The notes under the pieces: generated by a model
Databases searched by the model: none
What the model was told of the DNA's origin: nothing
The model's input: the letters and a program-made list of their open reading frames with translations, nothing else
Assembly: GCA_020435085.1 (NCBI GenBank)
Contig: JAGRAB010000237.1
Location: 1-5,004 of the forward strand
Length of the DNA stretch: 5,004 nt
From: Bdellovibrionales bacterium
Lineage (GTDB): Bacteria; Bdellovibrionota; Bdellovibrionia; Bdellovibrionales; UBA1609
Direction: 5' to 3'
In this document: positions 1-4,905 of the stretch, piece by piece
Numbering within the stretch: position 1 is the first letter of the stretch
Layout: the number at the start of each line of letters is the position of its first letter
Program-made: the position numbers and the translations under genes

Positions 1-625
1 TTTCTTTTTGCTCATCACCCATAGAGCCCGAAACGTCCATCATATAAATAACAACCGCATTAGCCTGAGGCTTTACCGTTGTTTTAGGTTTTCTGTAACG
101 AATATCTCTTTTAATTGGTACAACAATAGGATCGTGCGGATCATATGTGCCACTGGCGAGCTGTCGCTTCAAAGCCTCTTTATAAGATTCTTTAAAGTTT
201 CTCAAGCTATCGGGGCCGACAGGGCCTCTTCCGGTATACCGGTTTTGTAAGGTTTCGACGTTTTTGTTTCCACGCGGCTCGATTTTAGGCAGCTCCAACT
301 GCTCTCCTAAAATGTCTGCCAACTCTTCAAGAGTCACGTCTACCTCAAGAACATGTTGGCCAGGGCTATCTCCTGCCTGGCCAGAGCCCGGCTGTTGCTC
401 GCCCTCAACACCATCTCCTGGTTTGCCATCTCCTTGACCAACACCACCGGATTGTTTTTTTCCGTATTTAAAACGAGGGGTTTCTATTTGAGGAACAGGA
501 ATTTTGACGTATTCGTTTTCACGCTTACCGATCATTTCTCCTTGGGTCACATATTTTTTAAAGTTCTGCTTTATGCGACCTCGGATAATATCTTTAAATC
601 TTCTGTGATCCTCAAGTATTCCCAT
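1..625 (-). CDS. yhbH: DUF444 / VWA-domain protein YhbH (YeaH), N-terminal 208 residues, cut by window edge
   Basis: The start codon is at 625-623 and the frame stays open to the left edge, giving 208 codons of a protein that is usually about 380-430 residues. The protein opens with [20 protein letters not shown], a basic start typical of the YeaH/YhbH family. A Gly/Gln/Pro-rich low-complexity linker follows at residues 58-90. The end of the visible part, residues 197-201, is DVSGS. This is the DxSxS metal-ion-dependent adhesion site of a von Willebrand A domain, preceded by a hydrophobic beta-strand (AVVIYMM). The family is found beside prkA and spoVR. In E. coli yeaGH responds to nitrogen starvation and stationary phase, and in Bacillus yhbH belongs to the sporulation regulon; the molecular role is unclear. 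The gene overlaps the prkA stop by one base. No Shine-Dalgarno sits at normal distance (the nearest GGAG is about 19 nt upstream), so translation is probably coupled to prkA. Confidence 0.93.
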
Positions 626-2703
626 TATTTTTTATCTTTCACATCTCCACGCGCAAAAATAGAAGCCACATAATGTAAAACATCAGTCGCTGAGATCTCG
701 TCATATCCGAAATCTTTAATCAAGCGAGTTTTTACAATATCAATTTTTTCTTGCGTGTCCTTATCTGTTACAGATGTTACTAGAGACGTTAGTTTAATTG
801 AATCTTTTTGATCTTCAAAAAGCTTTAGTTCTAAAGCCTTATGGAGTCTTTCATTTGTTTTATAATCAAACTTTTTTCCATCCAAAGAAATCGCGCCAAT
901 GTAATTCATAATCTCTCTGCGGAAATCATCTTTTCGAGAGTCAGGAATTTCAATTTTTTCCTCAATCGATCGCATGAGTCTTTCATCTGGCTCTTCATCC
1001 GCACCAGTAAACTGATTACGAACTTTTTCTTTTTGGGTATAGGCTTTAACATTATCAATGTAGTTCCCACAAAGTCGATGAAGAGCACTCTCATCAGCAG
1101 AAATCGCTCTTTGAACTTCGCCTTTAATGATCTCTTCATACTCTTGTTTAACAACACCCAAAAGCTCTTTGTAATCTTGCTTTTGTTCTTCATTACCAAT
1201 AAGTGAGTGATGCTTTAACCCACCCTCTAACTCTTTAATGACCATGAATGGATTGACCGAGCCACGGTTGCGCTGCTGAGCCTGAACAATCGAGTTAGAA
1301 AGTTTATCTTGAATATATCGAGGCGAAATTCCTTCTAGCCCCTCTCTTCTTGCTTCTTTACGAAGCTCTTTAATATTGTCTTCTGTATAGTTTGGTAAAG
1401 ATTTTCCATTGTAAAGCTTGAGCTTTTGTAGTCGCGTCAGATTCGCTTTTTTTGGTTTTTCCAAACGAGTCAATATCGCCCACATACTTGCCATTTCAAT
1501 CGTGTGAGGGGCAATACTCACACCTCGAAGAATACGACTATTAAAGTCTTTTTTATAAATATTAATTTCATCTTTTAGTTTTGTTATATACGGGATATCA
1601 ATTTTAACAGTTCTATCTCTAAGGGCTTCCATAAACTCATTGTCTTGAAGTTTACGATACTCTGGCTCATTGGTATGGCCAATAATCACTTCATCAATCA
1701 TGGTTTGAGCAAATTTCTTTGGTTTGATTCTATGTTCTTGCGAAGCTCCAAGAAGATCGTATAAGAAAGCCACATCCAGTTTTAGAACCTCGACAAACTC
1801 AATCATTCCCCGATTGGCAACGTTAAACTCTCCATCAAAATTAAAAGCACGTGGATCAGAGTCCGACCCATATTCTGCGATTTTTCGATAGTTCAAGTCA
1901 CCTGTAAGTTCGGTACTGTCTTGGTTCTTTTCGTCTTTCGGTTGAAAGGTCCCAATACCAATACGATCGGCCTCACTGAGCACAAGGCGTTTGACGCGAA
2001 CGTGCTCCAGCACTCGATTCACATCACCATTATAAGCTTCAAGGAGTTTTGAAAAGAAATAGCGGCTGGGCGGACAGAGCTCACCAACAATGTTCACACG
2101 AAATTCGCCTTTGGCTCCGCGATTGAGTTCCTCACAAATTCTCTCTCGCATTTCTATTGGAATAAGTAACATGGGATCTTCATGCATAGGGCTCGGAAAA
2201 ACCCGAATACCTTTTCCAAAAATATCTTCAAACTTTCCCTCTTCATCGACCCATTCAAATGTGTAAAGAGCCCCTTGATCCGTACGAGAGTATTTCTCAA
2301 CACCGGCTTTCAGCTGACGGCAGATTGTTGATTTTGCTGAGCCCACGGGGCCATGAAGAAGTATCACACGTTTTTCAGTTCCGTAACCATAAGCGGCAGA
2401 ACGGAGAACATTAACAAGTTTCATGAGCGGAATATCTGCTCCATACACAGCATCTTTTCCATTATTTTCTTCGTCATCAAAAAAATTATAATGAACCACA
2501 TGTTTTTTTACGTCGACATACTCGCGCGTTCCTTTTTCCATAATCATGTCGTACATTCGTTGAAACGCATTACGCGTGACTTTCGGGTTTTGCCTGACTA
2601 TTTCAAGATAGTCTGAAAACGACCCTGACCATGTGAGATCTTTATACCCACTCGAAGTTTGCATTTGTGATATGAGATCTCTGATAGTATTGCCCGAATC
2701 CAT
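625..2703 (-). CDS. prkA: PrkA family AAA+ / serine protein kinase (YeaG)
   Basis: This is a complete 692-residue PrkA, slightly longer than E. coli YeaG (about 644) and B. subtilis PrkA (about 631). The N-terminal AAA+ part carries the P-loop GPVGSAKST at residues 118-126. Further PrkA-type blocks are [13 protein letters not shown] (296-308) and GHTNEPEY (342-349). The C-terminal PrkA kinase-like domain is recognisable from [16 protein letters not shown] (545-560), [15 protein letters not shown] (570-584) and [11 protein letters not shown] (594-604). The family was described as a serine kinase with weak similarity to eukaryotic cAMP-dependent kinases, and AAA+ protease-like activity has also been reported for it, so the true substrate is unsettled. 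The ATG at 2703 is supported by an AGGGGG Shine-Dalgarno six bases upstream. The gene leads an operon with yhbH, which starts inside its stop codon. Start and family are secure; the substrate is not visible from sequence. Confidence 0.97.
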
Positions 2704-2709
2704 AGACAG

Positions 2710-2715
2710 CCCCCT
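2710..2715 (-). promoter_or_regulatory. Ribosome binding site of prkA (AGGGGG)
   Basis: Reading the minus strand, AGGGGG ends six bases before the prkA ATG. It fixes that start over downstream alternatives. The run of five G is unusual compared with the AAGGA-type sites of the other genes here, and it is complementary to the C-rich loops of the putative small RNA at 4748-4905. Confidence 0.75.
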
Positions 2716-2732
2716 ATTTGGTTCTCTTTTTT

Positions 2733-2757
2733 AAGGAAAGACATTGCACCTTTCCTT
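2733..2757 (-). promoter_or_regulatory. 5'-leader stem-loop of prkA mRNA
   Basis: AAGGAAAG (2733-2740) and CTTTCCTT (2750-2757) form a perfect 8-bp inverted repeat around a 9-base loop. From the predicted -10 at 2763-2768, transcription should begin near 2756, so this hairpin would lie at the extreme 5' end of the prkA transcript. Terminal 5' stem-loops of this kind are known to protect some bacterial mRNAs from decay. The role here is inferred, and a protein-binding site in DNA is an alternative reading. Confidence 0.45.
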
Positions 2758-2762
2758 TCTCT

Positions 2763-3185: not shown

Positions 3186-4022
3186 ATGTTTTCTCTCTCA
3201 AAATTTCTTTTAATTGCAATCGGTTTTTTCACGCTTTCTGCAGGTGCAGATTTATCCTTACCCTCGCTATATGTCGACTCTAATACTGGAGAAGTTTCAT
3301 CTGTCGAGCCGGGCAAATGGAATATTGATTCGAAAACACGCGGAGAAGAAATCGTCAGCAAATATCGCCAATCTGCACCCGTAACGTCTACTTCCGCCGA
3401 TGGTTTCATCACTCAAGTTCTTGGTGCAGCTGATGTGGGTCTTTATTCTAAAGACAAATCCCCCCAAAGACTCACCCGGGTTTCATACATATCCACCCAC
3501 AAAGAGGGGTTTATGGGCATAGACAAAGATTTCAATTACATCGCAAAGGTCGAAAACATTGAATATCAAGCTGGTAAAAAAAGCAGTGTCAGTGCTTGTA
3601 GCTCGCTTAACAAAGAAAAGGCGTGTGTTACCGTAACAGCTAACTTATGTCAGCGCACCGTTGACCAGCTCAATGTTCAACGAGGAAAACTTGGCAAATC
3701 TCCTTATAAATCTTGGTCAGAGATCAGCCAAGAGTATTCATTCTGTAGCACATTTCAAACCAAACTCACCCCAGAAGTTATTAACGAACTCAAAGGCGCC
3801 GAAAAGACGGCTCAAACAAATATCAAATCGACTTATTCCGATCTCAAAAGAAATTTGCCTAAATTTCAATTTGACGCCACCTCTCGATTTTTTACAAAGC
3901 CTGCACCTTCTGAGGGATTCTTAAGTCCGTTAATAGAAGGTTGCGCCAATCACTTTCCAAGTGCAATCGTTGCTGAAGCTCAAAAACCAAGTTCAAGGGC
4001 AAAAAAAGAGGGAGCTCGATAG
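3186..4022 (+). CDS. Secreted or periplasmic protein of unknown function, five cysteines
   Basis: The product is 278 residues if translation starts at 3186, where AAGGAA (3175-3180) gives a well-spaced ribosome site. An in-frame ATG at 3162 would add eight residues but has no such site. Residues 1-21 form a Sec signal peptide: one Lys (K6), a hydrophobic core LLIAIGFF, and a likely cleavage in SAGA|DL with Ala at -3 and -1. There is no lipobox, so the mature protein of about 257 residues should be periplasmic or exported. It has five cysteines, C138, C147, C155, C187 and C253; the first three cluster within 18 residues and could form disulfides. The C-terminal tail is rich in Lys, Arg and Ser (KPSSRAKKEGAR). 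No transmembrane segment follows the signal. I do not recognise a family. The gene stands alone, divergent from prkA and convergent with the lipoprotein gene. Confidence 0.85.
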   Translation: MFSLSKFLLIAIGFFTLSAGADLSLPSLYVDSNTGEVSSVEPGKWNIDSKTRGEEIVSKYRQSAPVTSTSADGFITQVLGAADVGLYSKDKSPQRLTRVSYISTHKEGFMGIDKDFNYIAKVENIEYQAGKKSSVSACSSLNKEKACVTVTANLCQRTVDQLNVQRGKLGKSPYKSWSEISQEYSFCSTFQTKLTPEVINELKGAEKTAQTNIKSTYSDLKRNLPKFQFDATSRFFTKPAPSEGFLSPLIEGCANHFPSAIVAEAQKPSSRAKKEGAR

Positions 4023-4047: not shown

Positions 4048-4662
4048 TTATCGCACTCGGTATTTTTGAAAAGACTTTGGAACTTTAAGAGAAAATACCG
4101 AGTCTGCGTGAGGTGTGAAGCTTGAAATATTCATTTGAATTTCTGCTTTGCTATGTTCAATAAAAATCGCTTTTCTTCGACCTTTGCGATCTTTCCAGGT
4201 GATTTTTAATTGGTCTTGAAGGTTTTTACATTCTAATAAGAATCCGATTTTATCTTTTATACAGCTCCAATTTTTATCAGTCATCGCCTCATCAAAAAGA
4301 AGATTAAAAAACAATTTTGGATCTATCGGCACCGAAAGTATCGGGCCAAGTACACGGTCGCTAGACGCTCCCTCATAATAAGCTTTTTGTCGAAACAAGA
4401 GATATTGCACTTGATCGCCGTTGAGAACAAGGCTTGCCACTGGTGTTCCCATCGCTGCCGTTACGTCCATTCTTAAACTCTTATTTTTAATAGCCTGGAT
4501 GTCGACATTTACAATGAAAGATTTTGACTTCACTTTGTCTTTTATTAAAACTTTTGATCCCCATTGTCCCTCGTTATATTCGGCATAATCGGTAGGGATC
4601 ATTTGGCAGGCCGTTGTGAAAAAAATCACCAAAACACTAAAAATCACCAATCGAACCATCAT
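4048..4662 (-). CDS. Outer-membrane lipoprotein, LolB-like in size and pattern
   Basis: This 204-residue protein starts with a basic residue and the hydrophobic stretch LVIFSVLVIFF, then TTAC at 16-19. That makes C19 the likely lipidated residue; Thr at -3 instead of Leu is non-canonical. The residue after Cys is Gln, not Asp, which favours outer-membrane sorting. The mature part contains LRMDVTAAMGTPVASLVLNG (63-82), then QVQYLLFRQKAYYEG. This resembles the LolB/LppX-type half-barrel, where a strand ending in 'tP.G..va.l.l' precedes the next strand, and E. coli LolB is of similar length (207). LolB receives lipoproteins from LolA and inserts them in the outer membrane, but this protein is too divergent to assert that role. 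C134 and C145 could pair as a disulfide in the periplasm. AAGGA lies seven bases before the first of two adjacent ATG codons, supporting 4662 as start. Confidence 0.88.
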   Translation of the reverse strand: MMVRLVIFSVLVIFFTTACQMIPTDYAEYNEGQWGSKVLIKDKVKSKSFIVNVDIQAIKNKSLRMDVTAAMGTPVASLVLNGDQVQYLLFRQKAYYEGASSDRVLGPILSVPIDPKLFFNLLFDEAMTDKNWSCIKDKIGFLLECKNLQDQLKITWKDRKGRRKAIFIEHSKAEIQMNISSFTPHADSVFSLKVPKSFQKYRVR

Positions 4663-4721
4663 CCTATGTTCCTTTTTATTTTGATCAGAAAAGCTTTAAA
4701 GGCTTCTCATATCATTTCTAT

Positions 4722-4749
4722 TTTATAGGTGAAAGAAGCTCTGCTTCAA
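4722..4749 (-). promoter_or_regulatory. Predicted sigma70-type promoter of the lipoprotein gene
   Basis: On the minus strand, TTGAAG (4749-4744) and TATAAA (4727-4722) are separated by 16 bases, matching the consensus at four and five of six positions. The leader would be about 50 bases. The -35 overlaps the T-tract of the terminator just upstream. The spacer contains a 13-base inverted repeat GAAGC-TCT-GCTTC (4735-4747) that also covers most of the -35 and may be an operator. Confidence 0.55.
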
Positions 4750-4782
4750 AAAAGTATGCCCCCTTTAACTCAAGGGGGCATA
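4748..4782 (-). terminator. Strong intrinsic terminator (minus strand) of the putative small RNA
   Basis: TATGCCCCCTT (4755-4765) and AAGGGGGCATA (4772-4782) form a perfect 11-bp GC-rich stem with a 6-base loop. On the minus strand the stem is followed by AC and then six T (4753-4748), the classical Rho-independent layout. On the plus strand it is followed by AAAAACAAAG, which would not terminate. It therefore ends a minus-strand transcript coming from 4783 or beyond, where no minus-strand protein gene exists. Confidence 0.8.
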
Positions 4783-4905
4783 AAAACAAAGGGCTAAGCA
4801 GTGCGGGTGTTTCGGAGGAAACTAAGACATTAAGGGGGGGTGTCTTATAGGCACTTGCTTTAAGGGGAAGCAAAAAGGTATTTTGAGGATCCCCACTGCT
4901 TAGTC
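4748..4905 (-). ncRNA. Putative small RNA with three C-rich hairpin loops
   Basis: On the minus strand, CTAAGCAGTG (4903-4894) pairs perfectly with CACTGCTTAG (4803-4794). Three more G-C pairs (4893-4891 with 4807-4805) follow across one bulged G. Inside are three hairpins. Hairpin A (4873-4855) has a 6-bp stem and loop CCCCTTA. Hairpin B (4847-4823) has a 7-bp stem and an 11-base loop of seven C plus TTAA. Hairpin C (4822-4809) has a 5-bp stem and loop CTCC, directly abutting B. A strong minus-strand terminator follows. The RNA would be about 155 nt. All loops are complementary to Shine-Dalgarno-like sequences, as in RsaE-type and 6C RNAs, which suggests trans-acting translational control. 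The promoter is unclear: TTTAAT (4912-4907) is a fair -10 without a good -35. The strand choice rests on the terminator. Regulatory action is inference. Confidence 0.55.

What the first reader, a model, noticed from the sequence alone, without database searches (positions are those of the whole stretch)
4748..4905. Undescribed small RNA: closed four-way junction displaying three C-rich, anti-Shine-Dalgarno loops
The sequence directly shows a 10+3 bp enclosing stem and three consecutive hairpins with loops CCCCTTA, C7-TTAA and CTCC, then a perfect 11-bp terminator with six T on the same strand. No protein gene accounts for that terminator. Displaying C-rich loops is the known strategy of RsaE-type sRNAs, which use UCCC motifs against SD sequences. 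It is also the hallmark of actinobacterial 6C RNA, which has C runs in two hairpins. Here the architecture is different and the host is probably Gram-negative. I infer a global translational repressor whose loops each target SD-like purine runs.
Basis: partly seen in the sequence, partly recalled or inferred. Interest (0 to 1): 0.75.

Follow-up and report, generated by a model that had tools for sequence, protein, structure and literature searches.

The report
Structured C-loop RNA beside prkA
In uncultured bacteria related to the predator Bdellovibrio, a stretch between genes has the predicted fold and end signal of a small RNA, kept in a second species with matching base changes on both sides of its main stem; it likely switches off a nearby kinase-like gene, prkA, by pairing with that gene's start site, but no experiment has yet shown the RNA or its effect.

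Summary
The minus strand at 4905-4748 folds as described (z -6.95) and ends in an 11-bp terminator with six T. blastn found one syntenic relative, in a second genome of the same genus (Bdellovibrionia MAG). That copy keeps the enclosing stem as 16 continuous pairs: 3 double compensatory changes, 4 one-sided changes, one inserted pair. Five of its pairs are G-U and would be A-C on the other strand, so the minus strand is the RNA. The terminator is rebuilt from different sequence. Primary sequence is kept mainly in the middle hairpin (30 of 34 identical, C7 loop). The third hairpin and first loop are not kept, so the three-loop "closed four-way junction" is not the conserved unit. No Rfam match reaches its cut-off, and 6S RNA lies elsewhere in all three genus members. 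That hairpin's 5' arm plus C7 is complementary to the Shine-Dalgarno and start codon of nearby prkA: 15 pairs with one bulge in the relative, where the site is the only exact match in the genome; 14 of 15 in the window. I commit to a genus-restricted, probably Hfq-independent sRNA that likely represses prkA. The pairing is post hoc and rests on two genomes; transcription and function are untested. A leader of the downstream DUF4292 gene remains possible.

The parts
4748..4905 (-). Candidate small RNA gene, closing stem to T tract (about 158 nt); true 5' end unknown
4891..4905 (-). Enclosing stem, 5' strand (GACUAAGCAGUGGGG)
   Evidence: pairing kept in the relative with 3 double and 4 one-sided changes
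4792..4807 (-). Enclosing stem, 3' strand (CCCGCACUGCUUAGCC, one bulged G)
4854..4874 (-). Hairpin 1, loop CCCCUUA (4861-4867); stem kept in the relative, loop not
4823..4847 (-). Hairpin 2, loop CCCCCCCUUAA (4830-4840); the conserved core
4834..4851 (-). Segment CCUAUAAGACACCCCCCC holding the predicted antisense (5' flank and arm of hairpin 2 plus C7)
4809..4822 (-). Hairpin 3, loop CUCC (4814-4817); not conserved as a hairpin
4748..4782 (-). Intrinsic terminator, 11-bp stem and six T
   Evidence: different sequence but same form in the relative
2700..2714 (-). Predicted target site GGGGGCTGTCTATGG: Shine-Dalgarno to start codon of prkA
625..2703 (-). prkA (PrkA AAA and C-terminal domains), predicted target gene
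4048..4662 (-). DUF4292 gene, next gene downstream of the RNA

Best explanation
The minus strand at 4905-4748 carries the conserved predicted fold and terminator of a structured RNA, found here in two genomes of one Bdellovibrionia genus, that is likely a free-standing small RNA and likely represses translation of the nearby gene prkA by pairing its C7 hairpin with the prkA ribosome-binding site and start codon. Shown by sequence: the predicted fold, the terminator, the co-varying enclosing stem, the strand, and the complementarity. Inferred: the long stem presents hairpin 2; its C7 loop would contact the GGGGG Shine-Dalgarno of prkA; the 5' arm (CUAUAAGACA) would then unzip and pair on through the AUG, blocking the 30S subunit. 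Untested: that the RNA is made, when it is made, and that PrkA levels change.
For: Fold z -6.95. Syntenic relative in 1 of the 139 other genomes of the order by blastn, same form, z -4.84. Enclosing stem: 15 of 15 aligned pairs form in the relative despite 11 substitutions, against a null mean of 7.8 (P 3e-5); with a transition-only null P is 0.019. Hairpin 2 core found in 2 of 140 genomes of the order, these two. Antisense: GGGGGATGTCTATGG has one exact site in the relative, at the prkA start; up to 2 mismatches it has 5 sites there (reversed-pattern control 5), 5 in the window's genome (control 0) and 3 in G099 (control 4). GGGGGNTGTCTATG is in 12 of 140 genomes (control in 4); only in the two genomes with the hairpin does the frame behind it read PrkA. 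Whole-shuffled prkA leaders pair with hairpin 2 as well in 1 of 500 (window) and 0 of 500 (relative). prkA ranks 2 of 281 sampled ORF starts in the relative; the first looks like an internal ATG of trmD (recalled identity). The window's segment on its own prkA scores -20.9, reached by 3 of 281 starts of the relative, its prkA possibly among them. Of four starts in the window prkA pairs best with the RNA (-25.6 against -19.1, -13.0, -10.5). 6S RNA is separate in 3 of 3 genus members. No Hfq hit in 3 of 3, which fits a chaperone-free, loop-displaying RNA.
Against: The prkA match was found by eye after looking at nearby gene starts. If GGGGG is held in place, shuffled prkA leaders pair as well in 55 of 500 (window) and 14 of 500 (relative), so much of the strength is the G run. 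In the window the central position is C against C, not compensated. UGUCU in prkA may be kept as coding sequence of an older start (the third genus member's frame starts MS...). With the whole hairpin as probe prkA ranks 3 of 281. The prkA G runs are partly paired in predicted leaders. The third genus member (G099) lacks the hairpin 2 pattern and has a different C-rich region there. No promoter is recognised; the two 5' flanks share only a T-rich block ending TAA(T/A)AGACT. The prkA starts of other genera were not read one by one. Two sequences only.
Confidence: 0.45

Rival explanations
1. A multi-target sRNA: its C-rich loops pair with any G-rich Shine-Dalgarno, and prkA is one target among several.
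For: C7 and UCCUCC/CUCCU stretches are mostly unpaired in both genomes (0.67 to 1.0); pairing with an AAGGGGG-type site is strong (-14.4 to -15.9 kcal/mol for the C4 and C7 loops); 16 of 281 sampled ORF starts in the relative carry GGGG upstream.
Against: Loop 1 and hairpin 3 are not conserved. Conservation extends through the 5' arm of hairpin 2, beyond the C run, as an antisense to one specific site would need. Pairing with a canonical AAAGGAGG site is modest (-6.2 to -10.0 for six loops or stretches).
Confidence: 0.25
2. A cis-acting leader (attenuator or riboswitch-like) of the DUF4292 gene, the terminator deciding read-through.
For: The RNA lies on the same strand just upstream of DUF4292 in both genomes, 93 nt in the window and about 140 nt in the relative. 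C loops can pair with the terminator's 3' arm (-13.3 window; -10.9 for another C-rich stretch in the relative).
Against: The conserved C7 loop pairs with the terminator less well and with an interruption in the relative (-8.6), so no antiterminator through C7 is conserved. In the 27 fetched DUF4292 loci of other genera no C7 hairpin was found, and in 24 of the 26 with upstream sequence a same-strand frame of 460-519 aa ends within about 120 nt of the DUF4292 match, so a leader is not a general feature of the gene. A promoter-like site lies just after the terminator, though such sites are not well above chance in the window (15 against 10.9, sd 2.8).
Confidence: 0.18
3. The plus strand is the RNA: GGA-bearing loops that bind CsrA, as CsrB-type RNAs do (recalled).
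For: The plus strand folds well in the window (z -5.26) and carries GGA motifs.
Against: In the relative the plus strand folds poorly (z -1.60); five positions of its 16-pair enclosing stem would be A-C on the plus strand. No plus-strand terminator-like site past the stem was reported within the window.
Confidence: 0.04
4. A divergent 6S or other housekeeping RNA, or a chance fold.
For: Length and long closing stem recall 6S RNA.
Against: 6S is found elsewhere in 3 of 3 genus members and in 41 of 47 genomes of the family; no Rfam match reaches its gathering score; compensatory changes argue against chance.
Confidence: 0.03

Closest known systems
Actinobacterial 6C sRNA / B11 (Mycobacterium)
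   Same: C-rich hairpin loops and a repressed target with a G tract in its 5' UTR (PMC10470900, passages seen: two C-rich loops of B11, a tract of six guanosines in the eccB4 5' UTR). A reference title in that paper says the M. tuberculosis 6C RNA works independently of RNA chaperones; no Hfq was found here.
   Different: 6C is not among the Rfam matches; one conserved C7 loop inside a long enclosing stem with a separate terminator; conserved pairing extends into the hairpin arm; Bdellovibrionia, not Actinobacteria.
RsaE / RoxS and RNAIII (UCCC-seed sRNAs of Staphylococcus)
   Same: C-rich seed meets a G-rich Shine-Dalgarno to block translation (PMC9217828, passages seen).
   Different: Rfam RsaE scores 13.9 bits against a gathering score of 79.
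Attack-phase sRNAs of Bdellovibrio bacteriovorus (APsRNA1-7, merRNA)
   Same: Intergenic sRNAs with strong secondary-structure potential in a related predator, reported without significant homology in other genomes (PMC3627812, passages seen; the sentence is cut in one passage after 'except for that of B. bacteriovorus').
   Different: The word 'C-rich' does not occur in that text; their sequences were not compared with this one. merRNA holds a c-di-GMP riboswitch; no riboswitch family is among the matches here.
Antisense RNAs that start by loop-loop kissing (CopA/CopT type; recalled)
   Same: A hairpin loop plus one arm complementary to a region that controls translation.
   Different: Here the RNA does not overlap its predicted target; complementarity is 14-15 pairs, not full length.

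Membership tests
6C RNA (Actinobacteria) | Match to the Rfam model above gathering score | tested here: not met
   not listed at E up to 10
6C RNA (Actinobacteria) | Two hairpins each with a C run in the loop (finding text, and PMC10470900 passages for B11) | tested here: not met
   the window has two, but the relative keeps only the C7 loop
RsaE / RoxS | Match to RF01820 above gathering score | tested here: not met
   13.9 of 79 bits, E 6.2
6S RNA | Match to RF00013 above gathering score | tested here: not met
   no match at this place; 6S at other contigs of G000, G099, G100
Terminated structured bacterial sRNA (general kind) | Conserved fold with compensatory changes | tested here: met
   two sequences, paired by hand
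Terminated structured bacterial sRNA (general kind) | Own intrinsic terminator | tested here: met
Terminated structured bacterial sRNA (general kind) | Own promoter and a transcript | tested here: inconclusive
   no promoter recognised, a short shared flank only; no RNA data held
cis-acting leader of DUF4292 | Conserved antiterminator or alternative fold | tested here: inconclusive
   C7 pairs with the terminator arm in the window, less well in the relative; another C-rich stretch could
Base-pairing repressor of prkA | Complementarity to the prkA RBS in each genome with the RNA | tested here: met
   15 of 15 (one bulge) and 14 of 15; only two genomes, post hoc
Base-pairing repressor of prkA | Change in PrkA synthesis | not testable with these tools
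   needs expression data

The most novel reading that the evidence does not exclude
A new RNA family, confined to one genus of uncultured Bdellovibrionia, whose single conserved hairpin is a tailored antisense to the Shine-Dalgarno and start codon of the nearby prkA: a dedicated, Hfq-free RNA brake on the PrkA kinase operon, held out on a long enclosing stem.
Probability: 0.33. Interest if true: 0.55.

Novelty: new member of a known kind. Interest (0 to 1): 0.4.

Why it matters
PrkA kinases are widespread and tied to stress and starvation (general knowledge), yet I saw no paper on RNA control of prkA (10 of 1,070 papers listed, listing only; none). A chaperone-free antisense beside its target would be a compact case of how sRNAs arise: conservation concentrated in the predicted seed while loop 1, hairpin 3, the stem letters and the terminator drift. 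It would add a regulator in a predatory lineage for which the one paper I looked into describes attack-phase sRNAs only (PMC3627812, passages).

Tried and rejected
Rfam on the window, the relative and the third genus member: no match reaches its gathering score. The best by E-value is anti-hemB on the relative, E 0.016 but 20.8 of 49.5 bits; I take it as chance.

A covariance model from the window alone (R1) found the window only, in 140 genomes and in 30 sources. It missed even the true relative, and with filters off its best match there was hairpin 2 alone at 12.5 bits. These negatives therefore say little about distant relatives; the reach of the family rests on blastn and the hairpin pattern. 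MAFFT misplaced the enclosing stem, so I paired it by hand, and no two-sequence model was built.

The relative's RNA as query gave hits in 28 of 140 genomes at E up to 0.1. Apart from the relative itself and the window, 32 rows are stretches of 17-44 query bases, about 20 of them in the T-rich middle (about 31-92); best E 8.1e-4. I did not follow them up. The third member's region as query found itself and six short matches at E 0.028-0.097 in 47 genomes. Its best duplex with its own prkA leader is -39.1, a long gapped one; no control was run for it, so I give it no weight.

Coding: the 51-aa frame over the RNA and a 69-aa frame in the relative share 8 of 15 residues, E 0.041 for one comparison, over the conserved hairpin only; both have weak starts (TTG, GTG). 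I take this as a by-product of hairpin conservation.

Phages: no match. Genome contigs with the DUF4292 protein: 19 pattern stretches, none confirmed.

Target ranking used 281 ORF starts from 20 stretches (288,563 bases) of the relative's roughly 170 contigs, not its whole genome. ORFs were called mechanically and the best of up to three ATGs was kept per frame.

Full report
What is there. The minus strand from 4905 to 4748 folds into a 10+3 bp enclosing stem around three hairpins with loops CCCCUUA, CCCCCCCUUAA and CUCC, followed by an 11-bp terminator hairpin and six T. The fold is far better than shuffles (z -6.95, 0 of 200). No Rfam match reaches its gathering score. The plus strand also folds (z -5.26), so the single sequence does not fix the strand.

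Where it sits. On the minus strand of the window are DUF444 and prkA (PF04285; PF08298 and PF06798) and a DUF4292 gene starting 93 nt past the terminator stem; a plus-strand frame without a Pfam match lies between prkA and DUF4292. The window is a contig of 5004 bases in an assembly of 1.9 Mb, 62% complete. The relative found below sits on a contig of 25,451 bases, the length and place of a record named 'MAG: Bdellovibrionia bacterium isolate Co_bin.56'.

The relative. blastn over 140 genomes of the order, the window's own among them, found one other genome, G100, of the same genus, matching only query 60-93, the middle hairpin. Its surroundings are syntenic: prkA, DUF4292, then the RNA. Its minus strand folds into an uninterrupted enclosing stem, a hairpin with a C7 loop and a terminator of different sequence (z -4.84), while its plus strand folds poorly (z -1.60).

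Covariation. Pairing the enclosing stems by hand gives 16 pairs in the relative and 15 aligned ones in the window, 14 of them standard there: 3 double changes (C-G/U-A, A-U/G-C, G-C/C-G), 4 one-sided, 7 identical, 1 mispaired in the window only, and 1 pair inserted in the relative. All 15 aligned pairs form in the relative despite 11 substitutions. Random substitution leaves 7.8 on average (P 3e-5); allowing transitions only leaves 11.5 (P 0.019). Five positions of the relative's stem are G-U and would be A-C on the other strand (all). The minus strand is therefore the RNA. Hairpin 1 keeps its stem but has a long loop without a C run; hairpin 3 is absent, though CUCCU stays accessible. Hairpin 2 with flanks is 30 of 34 identical. 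So the conserved object is: enclosing stem, hairpin 2 with C7, terminator, with the stem of hairpin 1.

How far it reaches. The hairpin 2 pattern is in 2 of 140 genomes of the order, the same two, and in 1 stretch of genome contigs, which is the relative (the window's own record may be left out there). The third genus member, G099, has at the same place a different C-rich stretch followed by a hairpin without a T run, and no hairpin 2 pattern. A DUF4292 relative is in 120 of 140 genomes, and 30 loci were returned. In the 27 of other genera no C7 hairpin was found, and in 24 of the 26 with upstream sequence a same-strand frame of 460-519 aa ends within about 120 nt of the DUF4292 match. The single-sequence covariance model missed the true relative, so more distant relatives could be missed.

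What it likely does. CUAU-A-AGACAUCCCCC in the relative is complementary to GGGGGAUGUCUAUGG, its prkA Shine-Dalgarno through start codon: 15 pairs, one U-G among them, one bulged A. In the window the site is GGGGGCUGUCUAUGG and one position is C against C, leaving 14. The exact 15-mer occurs once in the relative's genome as held, at prkA. Up to 2 mismatches give 5 sites there, 5 in the window's genome and 3 in G099, against 5, 0 and 4 for the reversed pattern. GGGGGNTGTCTATG occurs in 12 of 140 genomes (reversed control in 4); only in the two with hairpin 2 does the frame behind it read PrkA. Among 281 sampled ORF starts of the relative prkA ranks 2 with the antisense segment and 3 with the whole hairpin; the one above it looks like an internal ATG of trmD (recalled from its sequence). 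Of four starts in the window prkA pairs best. The blastn-conserved piece coincides with the predicted pairing segment.

Limits. The match was found post hoc. Fully shuffled leaders do as well in 1 of 500 and 0 of 500, but with GGGGG held fixed in 55 of 500 (window) and 14 of 500 (relative). The two genomes are related, so the correlation is confounded by descent, and UGUCU in prkA may be retained coding sequence. G099 lacks both sides: no hairpin 2 pattern, and a prkA site AAGGGAG; this is consistent with the idea but no proof. The G runs are partly paired in predicted leaders.

Rivals. A leader of DUF4292 cannot be excluded: same strand, same neighbour in both genomes. No antiterminator is conserved through C7. 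A multi-target anti-Shine-Dalgarno RNA is possible; only 16 of 281 sampled starts have GGGG upstream. 6S is unlikely, being present elsewhere in 3 of 3 genus members. No Hfq was found in 3 of 3 genus genomes, one of them 62% complete; the control search rang in 5 of 14 named genomes.

Known kinds. It would work like C-rich-loop sRNAs: B11 and 6C (PMC10470900, passages), RsaE and RNAIII (PMC9217828, passages). It is not a member of 6C or RsaE by Rfam. Attack-phase sRNAs of B. bacteriovorus are in print (PMC3627812, passages); their sequences were not compared. Paper searches: seen as listings apart from the three papers named. No paper holding both 'Bdellovibrio' and 'prkA' as whole words is in the library; the 10 of 1,070 papers listed for prka, yeag and small rna showed no RNA control of prkA.

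Noticed in passing
L005 2180-2480, minus strand (G099): At the same place as the RNA, the third genus member has a C-rich, G-poor stretch (several CCCC and CUCC motifs) followed by a perfect 11-bp hairpin without a T run, and upstream a strong hairpin with a CUCCCCCUC loop; perhaps a replaced or fast-evolving counterpart.
   Followed up: partly
G000, G099, G100: No Hfq (PF17209) was found in the three genus genomes, although two are 96-97% complete.
   Followed up: no
window 2732-2760 and L002 323-347, minus strand: The prkA leaders of both genomes carry an inverted repeat upstream of the Shine-Dalgarno (AAAGGAAAG...CTTTCCTT; GGGGAGAG...CTTTCCCC, seen by eye); it folds in the window's leader but not in the best fold of the relative's.
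   Followed up: no
L002 1409-1430: A perfect palindrome CGGATCAGTATATACTGATCCG lies between the RNA terminator and DUF4292 in the relative; nothing as long is seen at window 4663-4747; possible operator.
   Followed up: no
window 3186-4022, plus strand: A 278-286 aa reading frame with a signal-like N terminus (by eye) and no Pfam match lies between prkA and DUF4292; G100 has no plus-strand frame of that size there and G099 has a different-looking one of 204 aa.
   Followed up: no
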